Shown in pieces: positions 5,677 to 27,947 of a stretch of DNA of 27,947 nucleotides. The DNA comes from a virus: positions 1-27,947 of IMG/VR virus record IMGVR_UViG_3300017527_000448; one strand, written 5' to 3'. The notes under the pieces were generated by a model, which was given only the letters and a program-made list of their open reading frames with translations, searched no databases and was not told the DNA's origin. The translations under genes were made by a program, and so were the position numbers. The first letter of the stretch is position 1, and the number at the start of each line of letters is the position of its first letter.

Positions 5677-6405
5677 TTAAGCGACTTTCGGCTGCGTTAT
5701 GTTAAATGAAGTAAGCGTATTAACAACACCGGATGTAACTTGAGTGTGGGTAATCCCAAAGTCTTGGCTGGTTCCAACTCCAACACGGCCTTGGATTCTT
5801 GGGGATTGGAGGTTTACGCTATCATTACCCTCTATGTAGCCGTTGTCATACAGCCGGCCATAATAGGCCGTATCAGTAACAAGCCCGGTTCCCTGAACCG
5901 TATCTCCGGAAGCAACCACAATCTTGCCAATGGAATCAAAATCCCATTGGATACCATTGGTAAGCGTCCCAGGCGTAAGCCCCCCATCGTCTACCGTCAT
6001 TTCAAGCAATTTGGTTCCGGTGGCGGCAAGATCAGCATTAGCCGGTTCAGGTGATGTGTAAACCACAAAAATGCTGTATCTCAATGCTTCTTGCCAACCG
6101 AATCCATTTACAGCTAAAATGGTCGGTGTATCCACGGCTGCGGCCTCGGTTGAAATTGTTGCCTCGCTAACAGTAATAACGCCGGCCACAAGACTCGCTA
6201 TGGTCCAATATCCAGCGTTTGTACTGGCGCCGCCACTCACGACATTAATCACCATTCCCGGTCGAAACCCTGCGGTTAAAAAATCGCCCTGAGTTGTATT
6301 GATTAAATTTGGAGCGGTAAAACTTATTTGGCTTCCAGCATCAACGACACTAATGCCCTTGCCGATAATCCGATTCACCAAAGCGGTTGAAAGTGAAATA
6401 GCCAT
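5677..6405 (-). CDS. Beta-rich virion structural protein, 242 aa
   Basis: The sequence is rich in Gly, Thr, Ser and Val with few charges, as in phage shell, collar or tail proteins. Residues 20-100 hold a compact beta region (ISFTAPNLINTTQGDFLTAG, then VITVSEATISTEAAA). The C-terminus repeats short strands (RIQGRVGVGTSQDFGITHTQ). The ATG follows AGGAGAAAGAAAA, and that Shine-Dalgarno overlaps the TAG stop of the upstream 317-aa gene. The exact role is not known. It comes right after the gp10-like gene, which suggests the tail machine. Confidence 0.8.
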   Translation of the reverse strand: MAISLSTALVNRIIGKGISVVDAGSQISFTAPNLINTTQGDFLTAGFRPGMVINVVSGGASTNAGYWTIASLVAGVITVSEATISTEAAAVDTPTILAVNGFGWQEALRYSIFVVYTSPEPANADLAATGTKLLEMTVDDGGLTPGTLTNGIQWDFDSIGKIVVASGDTVQGTGLVTDTAYYGRLYDNGYIEGNDSVNLQSPRIQGRVGVGTSQDFGITHTQVTSGVVNTLTSFNITQPKVA

Positions 6406-8225: not shown

Positions 8226-8618
8226 TTACCCCATAGCGGCTTTGGTTATTTTAGTCCCTTCGGCCTTTTGAGAATAAAATTCTTTTGCGGTAGCTTCCTC
8301 TAAGCGCTCATAGGGAAACATGCGAATATGAGCGATATTTTTTCGATCCTCGCCCGGTAATTGCTTGAATTTGGTGTACCTTGCATGATCGGCACATTCC
8401 AAAAACCTTTCAGGCAAAGCGACTCTTTTTTCTCGTTGCAAAACCAGGGTTTCGCCGTTTACGGATAATTCCACATCGTCCTTATGAGTTGGGTCTGACT
8501 TAGCTTGAAATCGAACCCAAAAGTATTTCTCATTCGGGACTTTGGATGTTTCCGGCGATTGTTTTTTCGCTCCTTCAGTAGCAACATACTTCGGTGTTTC
8601 TTCTTTAGTTGTAACCAT
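8226..8618 (-). CDS. Small phage virion protein between capsid and adaptor genes
   Basis: This 130-residue charged protein has a disordered N-terminus (MVTTKEETPKYVATEGAKKQ) and one compact middle domain (KYFWVRFQAKSDP, VELSVNGETLVLQREKRVAL). Proteins of this size and pattern commonly lie between the capsid and connector genes in phages; the function is not known to me. AAAGGAG precedes the ATG. It is the first gene after the hairpin at 8680-8712, so it may be made at a lower or separately set level than the capsid genes. Confidence 0.78.
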   Translation of the reverse strand: MVTTKEETPKYVATEGAKKQSPETSKVPNEKYFWVRFQAKSDPTHKDDVELSVNGETLVLQREKRVALPERFLECADHARYTKFKQLPGEDRKNIAHIRMFPYERLEEATAKEFYSQKAEGTKITKAAMG

Positions 8619-9280: not shown

Positions 9281-9925
9281 TTAGGCGTGATTGCCAGCTT
9301 CAAAGAAACAAAGGGCATCATCGATGTTTGCCTCGGCGGTAGAGTCCAGGAAAAAGCCGGCTGGCATTACCTGGCCGGCGGAAGCTCCGATAAAGTCAAA
9401 CATCCCATGCAGCGCATTGATAACACCGGACCTTGAGGGTGCAGCCTCGGAAAGAGTGACTTCATCAGCCGCCTCCCCGTTGCTGGTCAATGCTTCAACG
9501 GTGTACCATTTACCATCGATGCAAATCCGGCTACCTTCGCCCACATAGGTTGTGTTACAAACATCGTTCCAATGACCAGTACGATTTGCGGCGGTGTCAA
9601 GCGTCCATTTGTCAATTTCAGCCCCGGCCCCGGAAGCTCGTTTATCCGGGAGAGGATCACGGACAAGATAAACCGTGCTGGCGGCTTCGATCAAATTTCC
9701 CCCTCGGAAAACACCGATACCAACCTGAGAGGCGTTAGCCGCCGCCCCAGGCGTATCATTGAAGGTTTTACCACCCGCCACCTCGGCGGAGCGCATATCC
9801 TTTGACCAATGATTTAGAGGAAAGGTTGCAGTTTCAAGATTGTAGACCTTCACCCAATCAGGAATAAAACCAATTCCTAAGTAAAGGTCTGCCCCGGTTC
9901 CATCGAAAGTACCTGTTGCTTTCAT
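9281..9925 (-). CDS. Capsid-block structural protein, 214 aa (decoration-like)
   Basis: This Gly/Ala/Thr-rich soluble protein begins MKATGTFDGTGADLYLGIGF and continues with FIPDWVKVYNLETATFPLNH. This kind of protein is commonly seen directly after the major capsid gene in phages. It has no membrane or catalytic motif. AAGGAG precedes the ATG. It is the first gene downstream of the capsid protein, with a 68-bp gap. A head decoration or shell-stabilising role is the natural guess from position, not shown by sequence. Confidence 0.78.
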   Translation of the reverse strand: MKATGTFDGTGADLYLGIGFIPDWVKVYNLETATFPLNHWSKDMRSAEVAGGKTFNDTPGAAANASQVGIGVFRGGNLIEAASTVYLVRDPLPDKRASGAGAEIDKWTLDTAANRTGHWNDVCNTTYVGEGSRICIDGKWYTVEALTSNGEAADEVTLSEAAPSRSGVINALHGMFDFIGASAGQVMPAGFFLDSTAEANIDDALCFFEAGNHA

Positions 9926-19031: not shown

Positions 19032-19535
19032 TTAATTTTCAAGCTCTTTTTTTCTCATTTCATTTTTAAAGTCTGTTATCATTTTATGGACCTCTTCCGG
19101 TGTTTTATACCCTGGGTCTCCTGGTTTTGGTTTTTTTGGCATATCGGACGGTTTGTATTTATGAGCTAATTTATAATTAACTGCTGCGGCTTTTGATTCC
19201 ATTCTATCCTGTTTAGATGCTGGTTTATTATGTGGGAATCTTGGTGCGGCGTAGTTTTGTTCGATAGCTTCCCGAAAATAATAATTTGGATCGGGTGGAT
19301 CGGTTGTTTGGATTGCTTTGGCCACGGATTTTCTAATGGCTTTATCCTGGGTGGGTGTGTATCGGTATCCGGCTTCTTTTTTATGGGTGAGGAATTGTTT
19401 CCATATTTCCGGGCTTGTTTTTGGTGGTGGTTTTTTTAAAGAGTCCCTTAAAAAATCATCCCCTAGGTTTAATCCCCTTTTTTCCCCCTTGGGGGGGGGT
19501 AGGGGGGGGTTTTTCTTTTCTTTTAACTTCTTCAT
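19032..19535 (-). CDS. Replication initiator, C-terminal part (frame-shifted half)
   Basis: This frame encodes 167 residues if started at ATG 19535, but no ribosome site precedes that ATG. The folded part (SPEIWKQFLTHKKEAGYRYT, TQDKAIRKSVAKAIQ, YYFREAIEQNYAAPRFP) resembles the C-terminal domain of phage replisome organisers, which usually follows a winged-helix domain in the same protein. It overlaps the winged-helix frame by 80 bases. Removing one base in the C8 or C9 tract (19491-19509) would fuse the two into about 319 residues. So it is best read as the second half of one gene, broken by sequencing, mutation or slippage. Confidence 0.65.
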   Translation of the reverse strand: MKKLKEKKNPPLPPPKGEKRGLNLGDDFLRDSLKKPPPKTSPEIWKQFLTHKKEAGYRYTPTQDKAIRKSVAKAIQTTDPPDPNYYFREAIEQNYAAPRFPHNKPASKQDRMESKAAAVNYKLAHKYKPSDMPKKPKPGDPGYKTPEEVHKMITDFKNEMRKKELEN

Positions 19536-19992
19536 TAGCTGCTAGATCGTTTGTGGATATTTGGACATCGTTTGTTGATATTTTGGAAATCGTTTGTGGA
19601 TTTTTTAACAAAGCATTGTTGAATCGTTTGCCGTTTTTTATTTCCTCCGCTTGATATTGCTCCCAATTTAAGATAGTTATCAACCTTCCGCCCTTTGTGG
19701 ATTCGTTTGTTAAAAATCCGACCATCGTTAGCCACTTTATCGCCGTTCGTATGCTAGAATCTGACAATCCTTTGTCACATCGTTTGTGGATTGATTTTAG
19801 GGACGTTACCATCTGCCCCGGCTTTAAATGGTAAACTTGCCCGTTCCATTCCCAGGTGGCGTCTTTCCAATTTGCCATTAATAATAAGGTAATCATTACC
19901 ACTTTCGTTTTAGGGGGCGCCTCTTTCCAGGCTCTCTTGGTTAATAAAACCCGATACAACCTTATCCATCCAGAATTATATTCAATGGCCAT
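19456..19992 (-). CDS. Replication initiator, N-terminal winged-helix part carrying the origin iterons
   Basis: Residues 1-115 match the winged-helix module of phage replication initiators: GWIRLYRVLLTKRAWKE, VVMITLLLMANWKD, KPGQMVTSLKSIHKRC, SDSSIRTAIKWLTMVGFL, GRLITILNWEQYQ. Residues 130-150 (ISKISTNDVQISTNDLA) are a repeated linker because the DNA below holds iterons. After residue 160 the frame ends in a Pro/Gly tail created by the C tract, and stops at 19456. GGAG precedes the ATG. The four palindromes just upstream suggest tight control. Lambda O has the same order: DNA-binding domain, iteron-coded linker, C-terminal partner-binding domain. Confidence 0.75.
   Translation of the reverse strand: MAIEYNSGWIRLYRVLLTKRAWKEAPPKTKVVMITLLLMANWKDATWEWNGQVYHLKPGQMVTSLKSIHKRCDKGLSDSSIRTAIKWLTMVGFLTNESTKGGRLITILNWEQYQAEEIKNGKRFNNALLKNPQTISKISTNDVQISTNDLAANEEVKRKEKPPPTPPQGGKKGIKPRG
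19546..19791. repeat. Iterons and probable replication origin inside the initiator gene
   Basis: The 13-mer ATCGTTTGTGGAT occurs exactly at 19546-19558, 19589-19601 and 19779-19791, and with one change at 19567-19579. Shorter matches lie at 19623-19630 and around 19693-19709. The first three are 21 and 22 bases apart, two helical turns, and T-rich DNA (19601-19606) adjoins. Iterons inside the linker-coding part of an initiator gene are the hallmark of lambdoid origins, so this is the likely origin, bound by the protein it encodes. Confidence 0.7.
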
Positions 19993-20010
19993 GGCTCCGC
20001 TCTCCCTTCC

Positions 20011-20113
20011 CTGGTGGATTTTCTACCAGCCTGTCAAACTGGTAGATTTTCTACCAGCCTGTCAAACTGGTAGATTTTCTACCGGCTCGTCAATCTGGTA
20101 GGTTTTCTACCAG
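20011..20113. repeat. Four 19-bp palindromic operators at exact 28-bp spacing
   Basis: CTGGTAGATTTTCTACCAG-type palindromes lie at 20011-20029, 20039-20057, 20067-20085 and 20095-20113, each with eight-base arms around TTT. Copies 1, 3 and 4 have one changed base each. Spacers of nine bases are nearly identical (CCTGTCAAA, twice, then CTCGTCAAT). They lie 20 bases ahead of the initiator ATG, where a repressor or the initiator itself could bind. The short, near-constant spacers exclude a CRISPR array. A partition-type centromere is another option. Confidence 0.75.
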
Positions 20114-20114
20114 C

Positions 20115-20230
20115 AAAAAAAAGAAAGCGCCTGGAACATGCACGGTGGGACCAGCCACCGCCGGGGGCTTACACCATCCGGATTCCAGACGCTTCCTTAA
20201 ATTTGTATGGTTTGTATGATCCGATTGCAT
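20115..20230 (-). ncRNA. Structured minus-strand RNA ending in an intrinsic terminator
   Basis: On the minus strand a 14-pair stem (20196-20183 with 20136-20123) closes two inner hairpins: CCGG/CCGG (20181-20161) and CGGTGG/CCACCG (20160-20143, six-base loop). The stem is followed directly by eight T (20122-20115), an ideal terminator. Two stem pairs are G-U on this strand but would be mismatches on the plus strand, which supports the orientation. A promoter at 20265-20237 would start it near 20,230. It could be an independent small RNA or an attenuating leader for the initiator gene. Confidence 0.6.
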
Positions 20231-20238
20231 AATCGGAT
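20219..20238. promoter_or_regulatory. Perfect inverted repeat at the start of the small RNA
   Basis: ATCCGATT and AATCGGAT face each other around GCAT. The repeat touches the -10 box of the minus-strand promoter and covers the expected start site, so it may be an operator. It could also form a 5' hairpin in the RNA. Confidence 0.5.
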
Positions 20239-20265
20239 AATTACCACGATAAAAGAGAAAGTCAA
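20237..20265 (-). promoter_or_regulatory. Candidate promoter for the structured RNA / initiator leader
   Basis: TTGACT (20265-20260) and AATTAT (20242-20237) are 17 bases apart on the minus strand. The -10 match is moderate (four of six). Its position upstream of the structured RNA gives it weight. Confidence 0.42.
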
Positions 20266-20448
20266 CACTTTCACGGTCGCTCTTGTTGTCAAAGTCTATA
20301 AAAAAACATAAAAACAGACCTTAGTTAAAATAATTCATTTTTCTTTAAAATAGTTTTTTTAGCCTTTTATTAAATCAATTAAGGTATTTAATCCCTATTC
20401 TTAAAGGTTGTACCTAAACAAACCGTCAATTTTTTTTCGTTCCTTGGC
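20266..20448. other. AT-rich intergenic stretch between divergent gene sets
   Basis: About 180 bases, mostly A and T, with runs of A and T (around 20294-20300 and 20351-20357) and no convincing ORF. I see no clear terminator or further repeat. It may assist strand opening or promoter activity. Confidence 0.5.
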
Positions 20449-20476
20449 TTGACATTGAAAATAAAGTCCTCATAAT
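20449..20476 (+). promoter_or_regulatory. Rightward early promoter
   Basis: TTGACA (20449-20454) and CATAAT (20471-20476) are 16 bases apart, close to the sigma70 consensus. Transcription would start near 20,483 and run into the early genes, the first of which begins at 20538. Confidence 0.7.
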
Positions 20477-20537
20477 TAGAGACCACAGGCAAAAACCCAT
20501 GGCAAACAACCAAACAAAATGCAAAAGGAGTCAGACC

Positions 20538-20840
20538 ATGAAAAAAAGGCACATCAACACCGGTTGTCTCTATTCTAAGGACGGCCAAGAAATTACCATC
20601 GTGGATGATCCAGACCTGGAATTAACCCACTTCATCGACCATTCTCGGGGCATCTCCGGTTTCATAATGGGGATCGACCTATCAATCGCAGACGTTATCA
20701 AGGCTTACCTACGCAACGATTATTCCTGGTGCAAACTTAATCAAAACACCCAAACCCTGATCGATAACGATCACGAAAATAACGACCTTACCTTTATAGA
20801 TTGGAAAAGCCAGTACAATCAAATGGGATCGTGTTTGTAA
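20538..20840 (+). CDS. First early gene, 100 aa, unknown
   Basis: The ATG at 20538 has AAAAGGAG ten bases upstream; a longer in-frame start at 20499 lacks one, so I choose 20538. The protein (MKKRHINTGCLYSKDGQEIT onward) is acidic and Asn/Asp-rich at the C-terminus with no membrane helix or known motif. As the first gene after the early promoter it is a candidate host-takeover or regulatory protein, which is inference. Confidence 0.72.
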   Translation: MKKRHINTGCLYSKDGQEITIVDDPDLELTHFIDHSRGISGFIMGIDLSIADVIKAYLRNDYSWCKLNQNTQTLIDNDHENNDLTFIDWKSQYNQMGSCL

Positions 20841-20873
20841 ACCAATAACCCAAAATGCAAAGGAGACCGACTA

Positions 20874-21089
20874 TTGAAATTAAAACACATCAAACTGAAA
20901 CCGACCTATCTTACCTTGGCTGACCTGAACAACGATGTTCCCTGGAATGGTGAAATCTTTGCCGAATTAATGGAAGAGCTTTTTAATACGGTCAAATTCG
21001 GTTTCGGCAATCTGAACATGCCGGCCTGGACAACCAAACCGACCCACATCCGTTTCCTTAAACGTCAAATCAGACTCTTGCTGGCTTAG
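20874..21089 (+). CDS. HIKLK-type early protein, 71 aa
   Basis: TTG at 20874 follows CAAAGGAG, the same leader style as gene 20538. The protein starts MKLKHIKLK and ends THIRFLKRQIRLLLA. The first domain of the 203-aa protein at 22614 shares the HIKLK start, an acidic helix (LMEELFNTV versus LLEDLQELV) and the IR-LLL end, so the two are paralogues. It stops at TAG 21087-21089, and the same frame continues open for 84 codons into the zinc-ribbon gene. Function unknown. Confidence 0.7.
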   Translation: MKLKHIKLKPTYLTLADLNNDVPWNGEIFAELMEELFNTVKFGFGNLNMPAWTTKPTHIRFLKRQIRLLLA

Positions 21090-21113
21090 ATGCCGAAAGG
21101 AACTCCAACGATT

Positions 21114-21344
21114 ATGACCGGACAAAAAAAAGTCGATTGCAATGTCAAGGCACGGAATCGAAATTGCATGGATTGTGGTAAGGCCATTAAGGCCAACATC
21201 GTAAACCGAAAGGAAAATCCCGTATTTTACTGTTTTCCTCATTTCAAAATGCGAAACCCTGGCCATTCCCGGCGTAATTATGCCATGTGGCCCAGGAAGG
21301 TAGCTGCGACCAAGTCATATTGGGATCGCAAACCCGGCGCTTAA
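21114..21344 (+). CDS. Zinc-ribbon early protein, 76 aa (or read-through extension)
   Basis: This frame directly follows the TAG of the HIKLK gene. AAAGGA about 12 bases before ATG 21114 favours that start over ATG 21090, which has no ribosome site. Cys pairs NCMDCGKAI and FYCFPH make a zinc-ribbon-like knuckle, followed by a basic tail (HFKMRNPGHSRRNYAMWPRK). The paralogue at 22614 carries a similar domain fused in one frame, so read-through of the TAG is possible. Its stop TAA lies in the base of hairpin element A. Confidence 0.62.
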   Translation: MTGQKKVDCNVKARNRNCMDCGKAIKANIVNRKENPVFYCFPHFKMRNPGHSRRNYAMWPRKVAATKSYWDRKPGA

Positions 21345-21411
21345 CTTCTGCCAAGGCTCCCCGGCTCCGGTCGGGTGGCCTTATCGGTAAGTTAATCCAA
21401 TCGAAAGGGGG
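21341..21411 (+). promoter_or_regulatory. Intercistronic RNA element A (hairpin plus GGGGG ribosome site)
   Basis: TTAACTT (21341-21347, containing the upstream stop) pairs with AAGTTAA (21389-21395). Inner pairs are GCC/GGT, AAGGC/GCCTT and CCCG/CGGG. Eight bases later stands AAAGGGGGTGA before the next ATG. Same layout as elements B, C and D. Confidence 0.6.
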
Positions 21412-21421
21412 TGACGAAAAC

Positions 21422-21658
21422 ATGAAAGGAACGGTAGCCGCAGATACACCGGTAGGAATCGTATCTCTGGACGGAATCCGGTTTAAGCCTTTTATTTTAC
21501 CCAGGGTATTAACCAGGGGAAAGCGAAAAGGTCATTTTGAAATTTTTCTAACCAGGGGCCGGAAAGACGGTAAGATCGTAATTGGCCAGAAAAAGATCGT
21601 AACTCGGAAGAACATCAAAACTCTTCCCTCGGACTTCAAAGAAAAGGATGCAGAATAA
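21422..21658 (+). CDS. Small basic beta-rich protein, 78 aa
   Basis: ATG 21422 follows AAAGGGGGTGA by seven bases and is the right start, as the longer frame runs back through hairpin A and the preceding gene. The protein is basic and strand-rich (MKGTVAADTPVGIVSLDGIR, then PRVLTRGKRKGHFEIFLTRG), perhaps nucleic-acid binding. No family recognised. Its TAA shares a base with the ATG of the J-domain gene (TAATG), so the two are coupled. Confidence 0.72.
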   Translation: MKGTVAADTPVGIVSLDGIRFKPFILPRVLTRGKRKGHFEIFLTRGRKDGKIVIGQKKIVTRKNIKTLPSDFKEKDAE

Positions 21659-22185
21659 TGACCAAACGTGAAGCATTGGCGATATTAAAGCCAACAGATT
21701 GTAGCAAGGATGCGGTTCGATTGGCCTTTAGGACCGAAGCCATGAACCATCATCCGGACCATGGCGGAGAAACCCGCCGTATGCAGCTTGTAAATGAAGC
21801 CTACACGACTCTTCTCAGGCACCTTGCTAACGGTTGGAACTGGACGACCTGGAATCAGAAACAGGCGAATACCGATGTTCCTTTGACCGAGACCGTTAAT
21901 GCCATTTGGGAGAAAATCAAACATCTTCCCAAAATCGACATTGAGCTTTGCGGTACCTGGATTTGGGTAAGTGGCTGCTCCAGGTCAAAAGAAGATGCGG
22001 CGCTTAGAAAAGCCCTGAAAGATGCTGGCTTTAATTTTGCCCGGAAAAAGGAAAAATGGCAATGGCACCCGCCGGGGTACAAGAAACGGGGCAAGAAGAC
22101 CTACTCCATGGATCAGATCAGGGAACACTACGGCTCCGTAGACCTGGACAAAGACGAACATAGCCAAGTAGGTGCGGCTGCGTAA
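21658..22185 (+). CDS. J-domain protein with a C-terminal phage-type domain
   Basis: Residues 1-55 form a J domain: REALAILKPTDCSKDAVRLA, then the catalytic HPD in NHHPDHGGETR (H32 P33 D34) and VNEAYTTLL. J domains stimulate Hsp70 (DnaK) ATPase. Residues 92-160 carry a second unit (IELCGTWIWVSG, LKDAGFNFARKKEKWQWHPP) seen in small mobile-element proteins, function unknown. The classical Gly-rich and zinc domains of DnaJ are absent, so this is a specialised J protein that could redirect host DnaK to replication or assembly. The gene is followed by a terminator. Confidence 0.8.
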   Translation: MTKREALAILKPTDCSKDAVRLAFRTEAMNHHPDHGGETRRMQLVNEAYTTLLRHLANGWNWTTWNQKQANTDVPLTETVNAIWEKIKHLPKIDIELCGTWIWVSGCSRSKEDAALRKALKDAGFNFARKKEKWQWHPPGYKKRGKKTYSMDQIREHYGSVDLDKDEHSQVGAAA

Positions 22186-22192
22186 ATTAAAT

Positions 22193-22223
22193 GGCAGGGT
22201 GAAAGCCCTGCCTTTCTTTTTAA
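22193..22223 (+). terminator. Intrinsic terminator after the J-domain gene
   Basis: GGCAGGG and CCCTGCC form a seven-pair hairpin with loop TGAAAG, followed by TTTCTTTTTT. It lies 8 bases after the stop and directly before the ribosome site of the next gene, so it probably lowers but does not abolish downstream transcription. Confidence 0.78.
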
Positions 22224-22237
22224 AAGGAGGCGACAAA

Positions 22238-22654
22238 ATGAAAGAGCGATTTTATTATATCCGAGACAAAAAAGAAGTCCCGGTCATAACGGTTTGTATT
22301 ATAACAGACGGCGCACATCGATCAAGAGGGATCGCGCTTTGTTCTAAACTGGATATGCCCTGTAAAAAGGTTGGTCGGAAAATAGCGCGGGAACGAGCAA
22401 GATCAGCTATATTGGGAGGGAAGAGTCTTTGCCGGATTGGAAAATCAGAAAAAGATACCTTTAGTCATTTCGTTGATGCGCTTTGTTCCTGGAATTTAGA
22501 TTCTATCTATATTTCAGGTTTGGCGCATGATTCTAACGATTACGATTTTTATAAAGGTCTCTTCAATCCATCATTTAGCGAATTTAAAGAAAAAATAATA
22601 AGTGGAGATAAAAATGAAAACCGCACACATCAAATTAAAAAGCGACAATTTTAA
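22238..22654 (+). CDS. Unknown early protein, 138 aa
   Basis: ATG 22238 has AAAAGGAGG eight bases upstream; the longer frame would run through the terminator. The protein (MKERFYYIRDKKEVPVITVC) has an alpha/beta-like order with SRGIALCSKLDMP, KKVGRKIARERARSA and SIYISGLAHDSNDYDFYKG. No catalytic motif is recognised. Its last 41 bases overlap the start of the next gene. Confidence 0.7.
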   Translation: MKERFYYIRDKKEVPVITVCIITDGAHRSRGIALCSKLDMPCKKVGRKIARERARSAILGGKSLCRIGKSEKDTFSHFVDALCSWNLDSIYISGLAHDSNDYDFYKGLFNPSFSEFKEKIISGDKNENRTHQIKKRQF

Positions 22655-23225
22655 TGGTGTTCATCCAGATTGCCGGGAATACACCAACCGAAGGTGGTTT
22701 AGCTCTTTACTTGAAGATTTACAAGAATTAGTCATAGCCAACAGAGGCCCAAATTGTGGAGCTAAACATAAGCGGCTCGGTAACTTGCTGGCTCCGTGGG
22801 CGGATTACAGGTCAACCGTGGCCAGCTTGAAGAAAGATATCAGAAATCTTCTATTGCGGAAGTATCAACCGTTGGCCGACATAGATGCAGAAATTAAAAT
22901 GCGAAAGGAAACCATGACCATGATTAGCTCTTGTGACATTGGATATTATACTATAATGACCGGTGGATATTATACTTTGGTTTGTAAAAACCGGGCTTTT
23001 GATAGAGCTTTTGAAAAGGAGACTAAAATGGCCGGATGCGGAAAAAAAATGGAAGAATACGTTCCAAGTGGATTTGACTACAAGAAGATCACGGTAAAAT
23101 GCGGGAATACCTCACCATCGGGTGATCCCTGGCTATGTGACGATTGTGCCGAACGATATGCCGGGACGGATTGGCGCAGGGAAGCCGAACTCAATGGCGA
23201 AGCCTGGGGAGAGGATGATTATTAG
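22614..23225 (+). CDS. Two-domain early protein: HIKLK domain plus zinc ribbon, 203 aa
   Basis: GGAG before ATG 22614 sets the start. Residues 1-85 (MKTAHIKLKSDNF to KKDIRNLLLRKYQ) are a paralogue of the 71-aa protein at 20874. Residues 139-203 hold a zinc-ribbon-like domain with GCGKKM, VKCG and LCDDC. Residue 139 is an ATG (23028) preceded by AAAAGGAG at ideal distance, so a separate 65-aa zinc-ribbon protein is probably also made from an internal start. It stops at TAG 23223, just before hairpin element B. Function unknown. Confidence 0.7.
   Translation: MKTAHIKLKSDNFNGVHPDCREYTNRRWFSSLLEDLQELVIANRGPNCGAKHKRLGNLLAPWADYRSTVASLKKDIRNLLLRKYQPLADIDAEIKMRKETMTMISSCDIGYYTIMTGGYYTLVCKNRAFDRAFEKETKMAGCGKKMEEYVPSGFDYKKITVKCGNTSPSGDPWLCDDCAERYAGTDWRREAELNGEAWGEDDY
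23028..23225 (+). CDS. Internal in-frame start: 65-aa zinc-ribbon product
   Basis: AAAAGGAGACTAAA stands before ATG 23028, inside and in the same frame as the 203-aa gene. The product MAGCGKKMEEYVPSGF onward contains all the Cys pairs. The ribosome site is stronger than that of the long form, so this may be the main product, with the long form a fusion. Confidence 0.5.
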   Translation: MAGCGKKMEEYVPSGFDYKKITVKCGNTSPSGDPWLCDDCAERYAGTDWRREAELNGEAWGEDDY

Positions 23226-23226
23226 C

Positions 23227-23306
23227 TTTTGATTTTATCCTGAATGACCGGGTGCCGGTCCGGTCATTTTGATGTAAAATCAAACTCAATCGGAAGGGGG
23301 TGAAAA
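23227..23306 (+). promoter_or_regulatory. Intercistronic RNA element B
   Basis: TTTGATTTTA (23228-23237) pairs with TAAAATCAAA (23275-23284). An inner AATGACCGG (23243-23251) pairs with CCGGTCATT (23260-23268). The internal loop holds TCCTG on one side and GATG on the other, as in element C. GGAAGGGGGTGA follows, then ATG 23309. Confidence 0.65.
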
Positions 23307-23308
23307 TA

Positions 23309-23554
23309 ATGATTTTATTGCTTGAAGATGAAAGCAAGGTGAAAGGAATTAAACTCAGGCCCGAGTCTGAACTTGACCTTGAAGATGTAAGGCGGTTCTT
23401 TTGTACCGTTATGGCTCATGTCGAAGTCCAAGGCGCTGCTCACATCCTGATTGACAACGGAAACGAACGAGTCAGCGAACCCAGGCACTTCATTTTGAAA
23501 AAAGCGAAAAATGTTACCCATCCAATAATAAAGGACAAAGATGAAAAAAGCTAA
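23309..23554 (+). CDS. Small early protein after element B, 81 aa
   Basis: ATG 23309 lies five bases after GGAAGGGGGTGA; an in-frame GTG at 23300 falls inside that ribosome site and is not preferred. The protein (MILLLEDESKVKGIKLRPES, then HVEVQGAAHILIDNGNERVS) is mixed alpha/beta without known motif. Its end overlaps the start of the following amber-interrupted gene by 14 bases. Confidence 0.68.
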   Translation: MILLLEDESKVKGIKLRPESELDLEDVRRFFCTVMAHVEVQGAAHILIDNGNERVSEPRHFILKKAKNVTHPIIKDKDEKS

Positions 23555-23756
23555 AGCCATTACCGATTTTGGCCGCTCTATGCCGATCACAAGCGTTAGA
23601 ACCGGTAAGCCAAAGGGATACTTACCACGCTACGCTGTTTGGGGCTATAACGGCTATTAGGACGGAAAGGACGAAGTGATTGCAACCGGGAATAGTCTTT
23701 ACGATCTTAAACAGGAATTTGGCGATCTACCATTACATCTAATAAAGGAGAGATAA
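23541..23756 (+). pseudogene. 71-codon gene interrupted by an in-frame TAG
   Basis: ATG 23541 after AAAGGA opens MKKAKAITDFGRSMPITSVR and continues GYLPRYAVWGYNGY to TAG at 23658-23660. The same frame then reads DGKDEVIATGNSLYDLKQEF and ends at TAA 23754-23756, just before the next gene. The second half looks like the continuation of one domain and has no own start, so this is either an amber mutant or a read-through gene. No suppressor tRNA is in the window. Confidence 0.6.
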
Positions 23757-23760
23757 TACC

Positions 23761-24186
23761 ATGTCAGAACCAATCATAGAATACATTGGAAAAAACGGAG
23801 TGATTAGTAATCCAGAAATAAGGCGGCTATATATGCCGAAACCTGGGGATGTAATTGACTTTGGAGAATTTGAAGGAACCTACCCTTTTACATCCGGAAA
23901 ATTTGGCCGGATCGATTCGGAAACCACTTTGCTGTATGATGATACAGACGTTCTTTCGGTTTGCTGCGGAAACGCAAGCGTCTTTTGGTGTAACAAAGAC
24001 ACCGTTTCAATCTCCGGGGGACCGTTCGGCGCCGTTCATAAGAACTGGCTTGATTTTATCGGTCTCAAAAAAGTAGGTTTTTGGAATTGGGGGGACAACA
24101 ATCCGGGCGCTGACCAGGGTGTTCATTACTGGATTACTCGGCCTTTGTTCCTTCTCAGCAAATATAACGAAAAAGAATTGGCTTAA
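23761..24186 (+). CDS. Unknown early protein, 141 aa
   Basis: AAAGGAGAGATAATACC precedes ATG 23761. The protein is beta-rich with a Cys pair (VCCGNASVFWC) and a C-terminal aromatic stretch (VGFWNWGDNNPGADQGVHYW). It is soluble and acidic. I do not recognise the family with confidence. Its TAA lies in the base of hairpin element C, so its translation end is built into the control region of the next gene. Confidence 0.72.
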   Translation: MSEPIIEYIGKNGVISNPEIRRLYMPKPGDVIDFGEFEGTYPFTSGKFGRIDSETTLLYDDTDVLSVCCGNASVFWCNKDTVSISGGPFGAVHKNWLDFIGLKKVGFWNWGDNNPGADQGVHYWITRPLFLLSKYNEKELA

Positions 24187-24258
24187 TTTTATCCTGTAAT
24201 CGCCTGGGCGCAATCCGGGCGATTAGATGTAAAATTAATCTAAAAACGGAAGGGGGTG
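24183..24258 (+). promoter_or_regulatory. Intercistronic RNA element C
   Basis: TTAATTTTA (24183-24191, including the upstream stop) pairs with TAAAATTAA (24230-24238). The inner AATCGCCTGG (24198-24207) pairs with CCGGGCGATT (24215-24224). The arms differ from element B yet still pair, and the TCCTG / GATG internal loop is kept. GGAAGGGGGTGA follows before the TTG start at 24265. Confidence 0.65.
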
Positions 24259-24264
24259 AAGAAC

Positions 24265-24471
24265 TTGTATAATAGTGAACGGTTTTATGCGGCAATTCGC
24301 AAATCTGTTTACGACAATCGTGAATGGATCGATTTAACAACGGCGTCTTACATGATAGAAATAACCGTTGAAAAGGCGGGAGAGGCCGAAAAACGCTTGC
24401 CTAATTGGGCAGTACAAAACCCAATGGTAAGGGTAGGCATTATGACGATGAAGGAGTTTAATAATGGCTAA
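24265..24471 (+). CDS. Small early protein after element C, 68 aa
   Basis: I place the start at TTG 24265, five bases after GGGGGTGA, by analogy with the other elements; the GTG at 24256 is part of the ribosome site. The protein (MYNSERFYAAIRKSVYDNRE) is mainly helical and charged, with no known motif. AAGGAG for the next gene lies inside its 3' end, and the two overlap by eight bases. Confidence 0.62.
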   Translation: MYNSERFYAAIRKSVYDNREWIDLTTASYMIEITVEKAGEAEKRLPNWAVQNPMVRVGIMTMKEFNNG

Positions 24472-24622
24472 GACATTGCTTGGCGTCCTTTATGGCGCTG
24501 TTTCGGCATCGTTAGTGTGGAATCAAATACTGTGGCCAAGTGAGGAAGCGGTAATAGGCTTGGTATTTTGTTTCCTGGGCGGTCTGACTTATCTAATCGT
24601 TTGTGCAGTTATTGAAAGTTAA
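24464..24622 (+). CDS. Small two-helix membrane protein, 52 aa
   Basis: ATG 24464 follows AAGGAG by seven bases. The product has two hydrophobic segments, TLLGVLYGAVSASLVW and AVIGLVFCFLGGLTYLIVCA, joined by a short turn (NQILWPSEE). This fits a small inner-membrane protein such as a holin-like or superinfection-exclusion peptide, but no family is recognised and its place among early genes argues against a classical holin. Confidence 0.68.
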   Translation: MAKTLLGVLYGAVSASLVWNQILWPSEEAVIGLVFCFLGGLTYLIVCAVIES

Positions 24623-24641
24623 AAAAAAGGAGACTAATAAA

Positions 24642-25364
24642 ATGGCTTACAGACACATCAATTATAACGAGTTACAGTTTATCCCATGTCCGGAATGGAC
24701 GGAAACTTGGCACCCTATGTCTCACCATCAGGTTATTGTGTCCCTCGGGAAAGCGCTGGTGAATGAAGGGATCGGAATCCGTGACTATGATATCGTGGTC
24801 TCGGAAGATGGTAAGAAAATGTTTTCAACCTATACCCTGGACGTCAACCTTAACGGCGAAGGTTACGTTCAGATCGGCGTCAGACAGGCCACCGACAAGT
24901 CTTTTGCCCTGGGTGCAGTAGCCGGAATTCACGTTATTTGCTGCGAAAACCTGTGTTTTTCAGGCGGATACATCAATTTTAAGCGCCATACGAAGGGAAT
25001 GGATGAAGATTCTTTACAAAAATTCCTAAAAGAAGCGCTTAAAACGGCTCTCAGCCGGTCAACGGATCAATGGGAATGGCAAAAAGCCCTTAGAAAGTGG
25101 TATGTCAGCCCGGATCAATTCAAGATTTTAACCTATGATCTGATTGACAAGGGAGTTATGCCGGCATCGAAGTTGAAACGGTATCAACTGGAAGTAGCGG
25201 AAGAAACCCGGTTGAATTTCAACTACCGGACCTTGTATCAAATCCACGGCGGCGTTACCCGGATGTATCGAAGCCGATCTATGGTACATCGATTACCGGG
25301 AATAACCGAACGGCTGAACGCTGCTTGTGACGATTATGTGAACGAGTACAAGCTAGCGGCTTAA
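24642..25364 (+). CDS. DUF932-like phage/plasmid protein, 240 aa
   Basis: AAAAGGAG precedes ATG 24642; a longer frame has no ribosome site. The protein shows the pattern of DUF932-type phage and plasmid proteins: WTETWHPMSHHQVIVSLGKA, IGIRDYDIVVSEDGKKMFST, a short strand region GVRQATDKSFALGAVAGIHV, then CCENLCFSGGYINFKRHTKG and a helical C-terminus. The family function is unknown; it is common in phage early or plasmid regions. It is well expressed by its ribosome site. Its TAA forms part of hairpin element D. Confidence 0.68.
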   Translation: MAYRHINYNELQFIPCPEWTETWHPMSHHQVIVSLGKALVNEGIGIRDYDIVVSEDGKKMFSTYTLDVNLNGEGYVQIGVRQATDKSFALGAVAGIHVICCENLCFSGGYINFKRHTKGMDEDSLQKFLKEALKTALSRSTDQWEWQKALRKWYVSPDQFKILTYDLIDKGVMPASKLKRYQLEVAEETRLNFNYRTLYQIHGGVTRMYRSRSMVHRLPGITERLNAACDDYVNEYKLAA

Positions 25365-25453
25365 CTGTTTATAGGGCTACCAGGGCGCTTCCAAGAGGCG
25401 GGGGGAGTGTCCTGGTGGTCTGAGTATGCAGTTAATCTAAAACAGAAAGGTGG
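25361..25453 (+). promoter_or_regulatory. Intercistronic RNA element D
   Basis: TTAACTG (25361-25367, with the upstream stop) pairs with CAGTTAA (25429-25435). The inner GGCTACCAGG (25375-25384) pairs with CCTGGTGGTC (25411-25420) with two G-U pairs. The spacer TTAATCTAAAA (25432-25442) matches element C, and AAAGGTGGTGA leads to ATG 25463. The inner loop is larger than in B and C. Confidence 0.55.
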
Positions 25454-25462
25454 TGAAAAAAA

Positions 25463-25666
25463 ATGGAAAGAATAGACCCGTTTGCCACTCTTGAAGAGAT
25501 AAGCAAACATTTTGATAGCATAGATCAAACGGACCCGGAGAGGCTTGTTGTGTTCCTTTCCGATGTTGTGACCAGGGGCTTTATGGAATGTTTGATGCAA
25601 GGTTCTCCGTATGAATGGGAACATGCAATCACAAAGGGAGAGGCCGCTATTTTGCAGCCAATTTGA
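25463..25666 (+). CDS. Small early protein after element D, 67 aa
   Basis: ATG 25463 comes six bases after AAAGGTGGTGA. The protein is acidic and helical (MERIDPFATLEEISKHFDSI, then RLVVFLSDVVTRGFMECLMQ) and ends AILQPI. No family known. It is followed by a purine-rich, low-complexity leader to the next gene. Confidence 0.68.
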   Translation: MERIDPFATLEEISKHFDSIDQTDPERLVVFLSDVVTRGFMECLMQGSPYEWEHAITKGEAAILQPI

Positions 25667-25742
25667 GAAGTCCCAAAAAAAAGAAAAAAGCTAAAAAATG
25701 GAAAAAGGAGAAAGATAGGGAGGAAAAAAAAAGAGGAAAACC

Positions 25743-25907
25743 ATGAAGAAATTACTATTAGCTCTAAAGAACAGGCTCGACATTTGGAATCTTATTTATC
25801 ACGATGTTTGGGAAACTCCGCTACCCTATGATCTGCGATTGTATAACGTAAATCGGCCAGGACATAGGCTCCACGGATCGACCCTCTCTTACAAGATTGC
25901 GAAATGA
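25743..25907 (+). CDS. Small basic protein, 54 aa
   Basis: ATG 25743 has AAGAGG seven bases upstream. The product (MKKLLLALKNRLDIWNLIYH, then RLYNVNRPGHRLHGSTLSYK) is basic with an amphipathic N-terminal helix. No known family. Its TGA overlaps an ATG (ATGA) that opens a further 21-codon frame ending at 25969; that one is too weak to list separately. Confidence 0.6.
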   Translation: MKKLLLALKNRLDIWNLIYHDVWETPLPYDLRLYNVNRPGHRLHGSTLSYKIAK

Positions 25908-26091
25908 ATAACAACTTATCACCGGTTCACTTTTTTAAACTCTCGCATTGCCGGCGGGGTTTAGGTTGAGATGAACGCACAACTTGTGACGTAAGTACCT
26001 GATAGGTTTCGGGTAGCCGGTGAAAGGGGGTGAACAAGGGATTATCCAGGCAAGCCAGTTAATATTAACCACTATAAGAAAGGACAAAACA
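25908..26091 (+). promoter_or_regulatory. Leader region with an orphan GGGGGTGA site, possible degenerate element E
   Basis: This stretch has no convincing gene. CACCGG (25920-25925) can pair with CCGGTG (26017-26022), and small hairpins ACTT/AAGT (25982-25996) and ACCT/AGGT (25997-26007) lie between. AAAGGGGGTGAAC follows at 26023 but has no start codon at the usual distance. A 12-bp palindrome GTTAATATTAAC lies at 26058-26069. It may be a decayed fifth copy of the A-D elements or a leader for the collagen-like gene. Confidence 0.35.
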
Positions 26092-26631
26092 ATGAAGAGA
26101 AAACGAAACAGATGGATAGCGATCATGGTTGTGGTGTTTTTTTGGGGGCTTTTGTTCCATGTAGGCGCCCATGCAACAACGCCACCGGAATGTTACGAGT
26201 GTCCTCCAGGACCGCCGGGACCGCCGGGACCGCCGGGAAAAGGTGAAAAAGGCGATAAAGGCGATAAAGGTAATACAGGAGAAGCCGGAGCCGATGCAAC
26301 GGGCGGCGGCGGAAGCTGCAAGCCCTGCACGATCCCCCTTGCATTTTATGTAGATACAGGGGGTGGCCCGGTGTTCCGAGAAAACCGAGAATGGTGTCCT
26401 GTGGTGCCTAGATTAAACGATATTCTAAAGTTTGAAGATGATTTACAATGCACCGTGAATCAAGTAATATGGCAGGTAGAAGGTCGACCACTTGTCCATG
26501 TGTTCTGCACTACCTCGCCACCTGGGGCGCAAGCCGATCTTAGCAATTTATATACGAACGAAGAAAAGGCGGCAATCGCAGGGGTGGGGGTAGATGGAAG
26601 TCCATGTTTTATTGGATCGTTATTTGAATAA
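26092..26631 (+). CDS. Secreted collagen-like protein, 179 aa
   Basis: AAGAAAGGA stands before ATG 26092. The N-terminus is a signal peptide: KRKRNR, then hydrophobic IAIMVVVFFWGLLFHVG, and likely cleavage after AHA. Mature residues contain CYEC, then Gly-X-Y repeats (PPGPPGPPGPPGKGEKGDKG onward) for about 12 triplets, then a Gly linker, CKPC and a C-terminal domain with VIWQVEGRPLVHVF. Collagen-like repeats are usual in phage fibres, but those lack signal peptides and are late genes. Export from an early region suggests a cell-surface or periplasmic role. The two CxxC pairs could form disulfides. Confidence 0.75.
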   Translation: MKRKRNRWIAIMVVVFFWGLLFHVGAHATTPPECYECPPGPPGPPGPPGKGEKGDKGDKGNTGEAGADATGGGGSCKPCTIPLAFYVDTGGGPVFRENREWCPVVPRLNDILKFEDDLQCTVNQVIWQVEGRPLVHVFCTTSPPGAQADLSNLYTNEEKAAIAGVGVDGSPCFIGSLFE

Positions 26632-26663
26632 ATAAAAGAAAGATAAGATATGGTGCAGTATTA

Positions 26664-26691
26664 GAGCCACCCGCTTTCGGGTGGGTGGCTC
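26664..26691 (+). terminator. Strong hairpin between the collagen-like and zinc-finger genes
   Basis: GAGCCACC and GGTGGCTC close a GC-rich hairpin with CCCGCTTTCGGGT at its top. Only three T follow, so it is a weak terminator at best; it may protect the 3' end or affect the next ribosome site, AAAGGAG at 26697-26703. Confidence 0.5.
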
Positions 26692-26710
26692 ATTTGAAAG
26701 GAGTATAAAA

Positions 26711-27049
26711 ATGGCATGGTGCAATATTTGTAATGATTTTATGCTTTATCCGGATACTCATAAATGTCCACCAATCTTTGAAGTTTGCCAACATGAATAT
26801 GATCCTGACTATTGGATGAAAATAAGGGCAAGAGATGAAGCAATGGCGGCGGAAAAGTGGGCAGAACAAGATGATTGTGAATCTTCGGAATATCAAATTG
26901 TAAGGGGAACTGATACCGAAGTGTGGGTGCGTAAATGGGGAGAGAGCGAAATTAAAAGGTTTATGGTAAGCGGGGAGTCTGTGCCTGAGTATACAGCAAC
27001 ACCTATCCACAAAAAGGAGAAATGCAAAAATGGACATAAAAAAGTATGA
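26711..27049 (+). CDS. Cys/His zinc-finger-like early protein, 112 aa
   Basis: AAAGGAG precedes ATG 26711. The N-terminus MAWCNICNDFMLYPDTHKCP carries C-x2-C and H-x-C, a compact zinc knuckle, and C and H recur in VCQHEYDPDYW. The rest is charged (ARDEAMAAEKWAEQDD) and ends with EKCKNGHKKV. Function unknown; a nucleic-acid-binding regulator is plausible. The end overlaps the next gene by 20 bases. Confidence 0.7.
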   Translation: MAWCNICNDFMLYPDTHKCPPIFEVCQHEYDPDYWMKIRARDEAMAAEKWAEQDDCESSEYQIVRGTDTEVWVRKWGESEIKRFMVSGESVPEYTATPIHKKEKCKNGHKKV

Positions 27050-27509
27050 ATCACATCCGGAATTCACCGGAGAACCGATTTTTGAAGTCGGGGAATATCT
27101 TAGCCGCTATGATTATGCTGCCACACTTTTAGAAACATTAATCGCATACACCTGTAAAGCGGCGCCCGACACTCACGACACAAAAACCTTTTTCAGAGCT
27201 ATGCGAAAATCATTGAAAGACCTGGAAGGGCTTGAAAAGGCATTGCAGGGTAAGGGAAGAATCAAAAACCAAGAGAAGCCAGATATCTATGAAGTTATTA
27301 ATTCTTTAAAGCTACGACAACAAATATTGTCACGAAAAATCACGATGATCGAAGAGCTTGTTGGATCGGGAAAAAAGAAACCGAAAGATATCGTTAAAAT
27401 CCTTGAGTTGTTGGATGAAACAAAAACCGACAACAAAAAGCTCAAAGTTACTTTTAATCAACTGAAAAGAAAAACGCAGCTATTGTCTAAGCTGACAAAA
27501 ATCGTCTAA
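27030..27509 (+). CDS. Helical early protein, 159 aa, unknown
   Basis: AAAAGGAG lies upstream of ATG 27030 inside the preceding gene. The protein is nearly all helix with coiled-coil character (TFFRAMRKSLKDLEGLEKAL, then KIVKI-type repeats and ETKTDNKKLKVTFNQLKRKT). No motif is recognised. It directly precedes a gene of the phage recombination neighbourhood, so a partner role there is possible. Confidence 0.72.
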   Translation: MDIKKYESHPEFTGEPIFEVGEYLSRYDYAATLLETLIAYTCKAAPDTHDTKTFFRAMRKSLKDLEGLEKALQGKGRIKNQEKPDIYEVINSLKLRQQILSRKITMIEELVGSGKKKPKDIVKILELLDETKTDNKKLKVTFNQLKRKTQLLSKLTKIV

Positions 27510-27524
27510 TGAAAGGGGGCAGTT

Positions 27525-27947
27525 ATGTTTCAAGTTGTTGAAAAAATATTTGCAGTTAGAAAGTTAGAGGAAATATTTAGCCGGGAATTTCTTTTAGACC
27601 TATCGGTAGACCTTGGGAAAATGGCGAATGATTTTGAAATTGACCTTGAAACCGACAAAGGGCGCAAGGAGATAGCTTCCCAGGCTTACAGGGTTACACA
27701 ATCCAAAACATTTATTGAAAAGCGGGGCAAAAAATACAGCAAAATATTAAAGGCCCAGGCTAAAGTGGTTGATGAGGCCCGGAAAGAATTCAGGGAAAAC
27801 ATGGACGCTATAAGGGATGAAGTACGAAAGCCCCTTACAGATTGGGAAGAGGCGGAAAAGGAACGGATTGCGGCCAGGGAATTGGCCATGGCCATTGAAT
27901 CAGATCACGAAGAAGCCCTACTAATGAACGGCGAATTTGACCGGCAA
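27525..27947 (+). CDS. Recombination-neighbourhood coiled-coil protein, 3' end cut by window
   Basis: AAAGGGGGCAGTT precedes ATG 27525, and 141 codons remain open to the window edge. Residues 36-118 show the phage pattern in which a short beta/helix start is followed by LETDKGRKEIASQAYRVTQS, KTFIEKRGKKYSKILKAQAK, and RDEVRKPLTDWEEAEKERIA. Proteins of this type (often labelled TolA-like or DUF1351-like) lie beside phage single-strand annealing and exonuclease genes. The function is not settled. It suggests that recombination genes follow outside the window. Confidence 0.7.
   Translation, partial: MFQVVEKIFAVRKLEEIFSREFLLDLSVDLGKMANDFEIDLETDKGRKEIASQAYRVTQSKTFIEKRGKKYSKILKAQAKVVDEARKEFRENMDAIRDEVRKPLTDWEEAEKERIAARELAMAIESDHEEALLMNGEFDRQ

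What the first reader, a model, noticed from the sequence alone, without database searches (positions are those of the whole stretch)
21341..25463. A repeated intercistronic RNA element with compensating stem changes in the early operon
Four gene junctions (21341, 23228, 24183, 25361) share one layout: an outer AT-rich stem, in three cases containing the upstream stop codon, then an inner GC-rich hairpin, a short spacer, a purine ribosome site of the type GGAAGGGGGTGA, and a small gene. Elements B and C keep the same outer TTTTA/TAAAA core and the same TCCTG / GATG internal loop, while the inner arms differ (AATGACCGG against AATCGCCTGG) yet still pair. Conserved loop with changing paired stem suggests selection on RNA structure, not simple duplication. 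It could link the stop of one gene to the start of the next, or bind a phage or host protein. I know no described family matching it.
Basis: partly seen in the sequence, partly recalled or inferred. Interest (0 to 1): 0.75.

Follow-up and report, generated by a model that had tools for sequence, protein, structure and literature searches.

The report
Phage intercistronic hairpin-plus-ribosome-site elements
An uncultivated phage carries four related hairpins between genes of one operon, each just ahead of an unusually strong ribosome-binding site, laid out much like the RNase III cutting sites of phages T7 and T3 but different from them in sequence.

Summary
Four gene junctions (21342-21394, 23228-23284, 24183-24238, 25361-25434, + strand) each hold a two-part hairpin, a 9-12 nt spacer, a 10-nt extended Shine-Dalgarno (SD) sequence and a small gene. 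Each hairpin folds better than 200 of 200 shuffles. They are one family: a sequence-structure model of B and C finds A (E 5e-9) and D (E 1e-7) in the window. B and C diverged yet kept the fold better than random divergence would (37, 86 and 36 of 20,000 simulations). The stronger 'compensating changes' count depends on alignment. Element genes have four of the five strongest SDs among 19 operon starts.

The layout resembles T3's annotated RNase III sites in length, two helices with an internal loop, position at the stop codon and distance to the next start, but a T7/T3 model does not recognise them. They most likely work like such processing and stabilising hairpins, coupled to a strong independent ribosome site; cleavage is untested. 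No sequence copy was found outside this phage, but another phage has an unrelated two-part hairpin at the matching junction. New variant of a known kind; moderate interest.

The parts
21342..21394 (+). element A hairpin; stop codon of the upstream gene (21342-21344) is in the outer stem
   Evidence: fold z -6.4; coordinates; model R3 E 5.4e-9
21405..21414 (+). extended SD AAGGGGGTGA of element A
   Evidence: anti-SD pairing -16.4 kcal/mol, rank 3 of 19
21422..21658 (+). 78-aa gene after A
23228..23284 (+). element B hairpin (11 bp, 3/4 internal loop, 11 bp, loop 6)
23294..23303 (+). extended SD AAGGGGGTGA of element B
   Evidence: -16.7 kcal/mol
23309..23554 (+). 81-aa gene after B
24183..24238 (+). 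element C hairpin (10 bp, internal loop, 12 bp, loop 5); stop codon 24184-24186 in the outer stem
24250..24259 (+). extended SD AAGGGGGTGA of element C
   Evidence: -16.7 kcal/mol
24265..24471 (+). 68-aa gene after C (TTG start)
25361..25434 (+). element D hairpin (8+3 bp, small internal loops, 19 bp, loop 10); stop codon 25362-25364 in the outer stem
   Evidence: fold z -7.1; most stable 75-nt window of the contig; model R3 E 1.2e-7
25447..25456 (+). extended SD AAGGTGGTGA of element D
   Evidence: -13.1 kcal/mol, rank 5 of 19
25463..25666 (+). 67-aa gene after D

Best explanation
The four elements are cis-acting hairpins of a polycistronic phage mRNA that work like the RNase III processing sites of the T7/T3 early region. 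Host RNase III would bind the two stacked helices (about 20-30 base pairs in all) and cut at or near the internal loop. The upstream message would keep a stable 3' hairpin. The downstream message would begin in the former 3' strand of the outer stem, a few tens of nucleotides before a start codon served by a 10-nt SD that starts translation on its own. Shown here: the folds, their shared descent, the position at the stop codon, the constant 24-28 nt distance to the next start, and the exceptional SDs. Inferred: that the RNA is cut, that RNase III cuts it, and that cutting or stabilisation raises expression of the small genes.
For: The T3 record annotates stem-loops 'RNase III recognition site' R0.3, R0.5, R1, R1.1 and R1.3 between early genes. 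Hairpin lengths: 53, 57, 56 and 74 nt here, 40-54 nt in T3. Hairpin start relative to the previous stop: -3 to +3 nt here; 0, 3, 14 and 19 nt in T3 (R0.3 has none). Hairpin end to start codon: 24-28 nt here, 19-36 nt in T3. Same order of parts: lower helix, internal loop, upper helix, small loop. R1.1 is described as having an asymmetric 4/5-nt internal loop (PMC6121014, passages). A geometric descriptor without sequence terms, whose limits I set after seeing the elements and the T7 sites, recovered 3 of 5 T7 and 4 of 5 T3 sites; on the contig's + strand its top three of 24 hits are D, C and B, with A eighth, tied with three others. The T7/T3 sites show the same pattern of constant upper stem and loop with changing, still paired lower stem (7 of 9 lower pairs have double changes). 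At the junction after a 45% homologue of the gene before C, contig L388 holds a two-part hairpin with a 4/3 internal loop and the stop codon in its outer stem (z -5.0, 1 of 200 shuffles as good), the best of 26 SD-like sites in that stretch.
Against: A covariance model of ten T7/T3 sites gave no match to A-D at E <= 10 and none at E <= 5 in 173,727 bases that include this contig and SP6: no sequence-level membership, and the model's reach is narrow. D (19-bp upper stem, 10-nt loop, 1/2 internal loop) and A (2/2 internal loop, bulge, mismatch) fit less well than B and C. The descriptor is permissive: 9-18 hits in each of 8 single-strand shuffles against 24 on the + and 26 on the - strand, where it also hits the antisense of B and C. 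The L388 hairpin is not matched by the element model, and the junction after the homologue of the gene before D in G002 has only a plain hairpin (z -2.3). T7 site positions were placed by likeness to T3 and recall; only R1.1 (nt 5887) is given in a paper seen. The host and its RNase III are unknown. There are no transcript data.
Confidence: 0.5

Rival explanations
1. Translation insulator without cleavage. The hairpin sits at the edge of the ribosome footprint, is opened only by a ribosome finishing the upstream gene, and keeps the spacer and strong SD free of other pairings, so the small gene is initiated independently or by re-initiation.
For: Stop codon inside the outer stem in three of four and 3 nt before it in B; constant 24-28 nt gap; SD left outside the stem; element genes hold SD ranks 1, 2, 3 and 5 of 19 (2 of 3,876 rank sets are as extreme, partly circular because the SD was part of the finding). 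Relatives keep a hairpin before the SD at the two matching junctions examined.
Against: Does not by itself explain the shared internal loop of B and C or the two-helix design.
Confidence: 0.27
2. Operator for a phage or host RNA-binding protein that controls the four small genes together.
For: Shared TCCTG/GATG internal loop in B and C; several copies in one operon.
Against: The loop is not shared by A and D; the SD is outside the hairpin, so simple occlusion is unlikely. No candidate protein was looked for.
Confidence: 0.12
3. DNA-level element: recombination site of the attC kind, replication site, or quasi-palindrome kept by template switching rather than by selection on RNA.
For: Inverted repeats between genes; template switching can make paired changes without selection (general knowledge).
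Against: Sense strand folds better in 4 of 4, with 17 sense G-U pairs against 2 antisense; no tyrosine integrase match in the 54.7-kb contig (control rings in 14 of 14), though the contig may be incomplete; the recalled attC R' box GTTRRRY is absent from the 3' end of all four.
Confidence: 0.07
4. Intrinsic terminators or attenuators between genes.
For: Stable GC-rich hairpins; the scan flags a 15-nt inner part of B (23246-23260).
Against: No T-run follows any of the full hairpins; 9 terminator-like sites against 8.6 expected in 20000-27900. A convincing one lies elsewhere, at 22193-22212.
Confidence: 0.04

Closest known systems
RNase III processing sites R0.3, R0.5, R1, R1.1 and R1.3 of coliphages T7 and T3
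   Same: Between genes of the early operon, near or over the stop codon, 19-36 nt before the next start, 40-54 nt in T3, lower helix, internal loop and upper helix, constant inner part with changing lower stem. Element A also reads GGGTGGCCTTAT where T7 R0.5 reads GAGTGGCCTTTAT.
   Different: No match to a T7/T3 covariance model. The window elements carry their own extended SD as part of the repeat; D is longer. Cleavage is unknown. No T7-type RNA polymerase was found (whose control was silent, so this is weak).
[quoted passage not shown]
   Same: Repeated sequence just before gene starts, about half with an inverted repeat upstream; in some the upstream stop codon lies inside.
   Different: SAS consensus GGGATAGGAGCCC is absent with up to 2 mismatches. 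The authors find little support for ESAS repeats forming mRNA hairpins; here the fold is kept.
SP6 early-region hairpins 8527-8583 and 9363-9419 (my observation, not annotated in the record)
   Same: At gene junctions, two helices with a 2/3 internal loop, shared inner part and differing outer stems.
   Different: Different sequence; no annotated function.

Membership tests
T7/T3-type early RNase III processing site | hairpin between early-operon genes, near the stop codon and some 20-36 nt before the next start | tested here: met
   4 of 4 elements, against 5 annotated T3 sites. That the operon is early is assumed.
T7/T3-type early RNase III processing site | lower helix, asymmetric internal loop, upper helix of about 9-13 bp | tested here: inconclusive
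   B and C fit well; A has a symmetric 2/2 loop, a bulge and a mismatch; D has a 19-bp upper stem and 10-nt loop. The descriptor ranks D, C and B first to third and A eighth (tied) of 24 on the + strand, but is permissive.
T7/T3-type early RNase III processing site | recognisable sequence-structure relationship to T7/T3 sites | tested here: not met
   covariance model R2 from 10 sites: no element matched at E <= 10, filters off
T7/T3-type early RNase III processing site | cut by RNase III | not testable with these tools
   needs an enzyme assay
Cluster K mycobacteriophage SAS/ESAS | SAS consensus GGGATAGGAGCCC within 2 mismatches | tested here: not met
   0 matches in the window
Integron attC site | R' box GTTRRRY (recalled) and a partner tyrosine integrase | tested here: not met
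   3' ends read GTTAATC, AATCAAA, ATTAATC and GTTAATC; no PF00589 match in the contig
Any Rfam 15 family | match at the gathering score | tested here: not met
   only a tRNA in the window; in 20400-26600 two weak hits around the 22193 terminator, none on A-D, at E <= 2
Intrinsic terminator | GC stem followed at once by a T-run | tested here: not met
   no T-run follows the full hairpins; the scan flags only an inner 15-nt part of B

The most novel reading that the evidence does not exclude
A new phage RNA family in which a two-helix hairpin and an extended SD duplicate and evolve as one expression unit, with an internal loop read by a dedicated phage or host factor that switches on a set of small genes together.
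Probability: 0.12. Interest if true: 0.65.

Novelty: new variant of a known kind. Interest (0 to 1): 0.4.

Why it matters
Phage operons pack many small genes that need very different expression levels. T7 deals with this partly by RNase III cuts between genes. If an uncultivated phage has arrived at much the same design with different sequences, and attaches a near-maximal SD to each hairpin, processing hairpins would look like a general, convergent way to set expression in phage operons. It would also offer a compact natural part (hairpin plus SD) for insulating genes in synthetic operons.

Tried and rejected
Model R1 is void. On checking I found that the structure string I gave it shares 0 of 21 pairs with the folds of B or C. 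Its results are not used. The corrected model R3 (22 of 22 pairs of C's fold, 10 of B's) was built and rerun; the scores of A and D rose from 22.0 and 16.4 to 38.2 and 33.5 bits.

Copies elsewhere. All matches were folded and I inspected those with z below -2; only this phage's own has the layout. A spacer-SD pattern gave 58 stretches; 59 of 61 sites were folded, 9 have z below -3, 3 of them this phage's own A, B and C, the rest with different hairpins among those printed. The core pattern in bacterial genomes stopped at 118 rows; 2 of 118 have z below -3, neither with this layout. Exact patterns miss diverged copies, and two scans were cut short.

Relatives. Terminase, major capsid and three operon proteins were used; a capsid scan of bacterial genomes found no relative. 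The closest by capsid (77, 69 and 65%) match here only in virion genes plus one weak match to the 3,112-aa protein; two of the three are short fragments, so their lack of elements says little. R3 found nothing outside this contig below E 1 in 20 stretches of 277,688 bases. GRAAGGNGGTGA is absent from five related records.

The hand-counted compensating changes were demoted to an alignment-dependent result.

Not done: the Pfam scan of ten operon proteins failed on a coordinate error and was not repeated as a set; no structure prediction was run; no search for an RNA-binding protein was made.
Full report
What is there. The window is a 27,947-base virus record, near-identical (14 single-base differences, none in the elements) to bases 26768-54714 of IMGVR_UViG_3300017613_001354, 54,714 bases. 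Terminase, head-tail adaptor, capsid and head-closure genes run leftwards. A rightward operon of small genes holds the four elements; a promoter-like TTGACA-16-CATAAT lies before it at 20449, one of 9 such sites where 13.3 are expected by chance. I call the operon early only by analogy; nothing here measures timing.

Each element folds into a lower helix, an internal loop and an upper helix. A spacer of 10, 9, 11 or 12 nt (A to D) leads to AAGGGGGTGA (A, B, C) or AAGGTGGTGA (D), then a gene of 78, 81, 68 or 67 codons. In the 54.7-kb contig the 10-mer AAGGNGGTGA occurs six times; four are these elements.

More than chance. Alone, each hairpin folds better than 200 of 200 shuffles. Among 19 upstream regions, B-C (score 60) and C-D (33) align better than any of 4,000 shuffled pairs; A-B, A-C and A-D score 29, 28 and 27, reached by 1 in 4,000; B-D only 22 (P 0.016); two pairs outside the four also score 29 and 27. 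A model of B and C with their fold finds A at E 5.4e-9 and D at E 1.2e-7; after these come the antisense of C and B (1.3e-4, 0.028), as expected of palindromes, and then 0.072. My first model had a wrong structure and is void; giving it the right one raised A and D by 16 and 17 bits, which is itself evidence that they share the fold. Against: in longer windows with flanks only C, of the three elements scored, stays below z -3, and RNAalifold does not choose this fold for B+C.

Selection on structure. Simulating the observed B-to-C divergence (15 substitutions, 1 indel, 57 columns) gives a fold as stable as C in 37 of 20,000 cases at random positions and 86 of 20,000 at the observed columns, and as stable as B in 36 of 20,000 in reverse. 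This needs no register. The hand-aligned count, 5 double changes in 21 pairs and 0 of 200,000 simulations reaching it, looks stronger but rests on a one-base shift of the 3' arm; on the plain alignment it is gone. Sense-strand folding is better in 4 of 4 and rests partly on G-U pairs that the antisense lacks, which points to RNA, with the caveat that the ends were chosen from sense folds.

How it may work. T3's annotated RNase III sites, and the T7 sites that I placed by likeness to them, share the design and position. PMC6121014 (passages) gives R1.1 a 4/5-nt asymmetric loop; PMC4858673 (passages) says that the T7 early precursor is cut at five sites into mono- and dicistronic messages; PMC8708148 (passages) says that RNase III sites lack a strong consensus and likely depend on structure. 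A geometric descriptor recovers 3 of 5 T7 and 4 of 5 T3 sites and ranks D, C and B highest on the contig's + strand, but it is permissive. The T7/T3 covariance model does not match A-D. I therefore say that they work like such sites, not that they are members.

The strong SD is the second half. Pairing with a canonical anti-SD (host unknown) gives -16.7, -16.7, -16.4 and -13.1 kcal/mol for B, C, A and D; the best other gene is -13.4 and the next -10.7 (the starts of A and B were entered two and one bases off, which does not move the SD). The SD lies outside the hairpin, so the hairpin is unlikely to hide it.

Elsewhere. No sequence copy outside this phage was found, within the limits of exact-pattern scans. 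Two relatives keep the gene before an element. In L388 (45% homologue of the gene before C) the next junction holds a two-part hairpin, 4/3 internal loop, stop codon in the outer stem, z -5.0, the best of 26 SD-like sites there, 2 of which reach z -3. In G002 (36% homologue of the gene before D) it holds a plain 9-bp hairpin, z -2.3. Neither is related in sequence. This suggests that a hairpin before the SD is kept at these junctions while its sequence is free to change; two cases cannot prove it. Another contig, L144, has two neighbouring genes with a hairpin before AAAGGGGGTGACAATTA and a third extended SD without one. Among 189 extended SDs in fetched loci, a biased set, 13 have an upstream fold with z below -3 and under -18 kcal/mol.

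Print. Listings and abstract starts from eight searches did not show this element; the library lacks most subscription papers.

Noticed in passing
window 20011-20113: Repeated palindrome CTGGTAGATTTTCTACCAG (about three copies) upstream of the leftward gene 19456-19992; looks like an operator array.
   Followed up: no
window 22193-22212: Convincing intrinsic terminator right after the J-domain-like gene 21658-22185 and before another gene with a strong SD.
   Followed up: no
window 26024-26033: A further AAGGGGGTGA with only a weak upstream fold (z -2.5) and no start codon close behind; possibly a decayed copy.
   Followed up: partly
window 26662-26693: Short strong hairpin (GAGCCACCCGC, loop, arm ending GTGGCTC) just before the SD of gene 26711; a plain intercistronic hairpin of another type.
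   Followed up: no
L022 3702-13040: 3,112-aa protein with DarB-like antirestriction, methyltransferase and helicase matches and an LPD38 domain: a large polyvalent protein.
   Followed up: no
window 26200-26260: Collagen-like Gly-Pro-Pro repeats in gene 26092-26631 (weak Pfam match below cut-off).
   Followed up: no
L197 8527-8583 and 9363-9419: Two SP6 junction hairpins share TTGTCTAACATGTTGGACA in the inner part while the outer stems differ; not annotated in the record.
   Followed up: partly
L144 1434 and 1718: Two adjacent small genes of another phage contig, each with a long hairpin before AAAGGGGGTGACAATTA.
   Followed up: partly
L388 854-918: Two-part hairpin with the stop codon in its outer stem at the junction that matches element C, unrelated in sequence.
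   Followed up: partly
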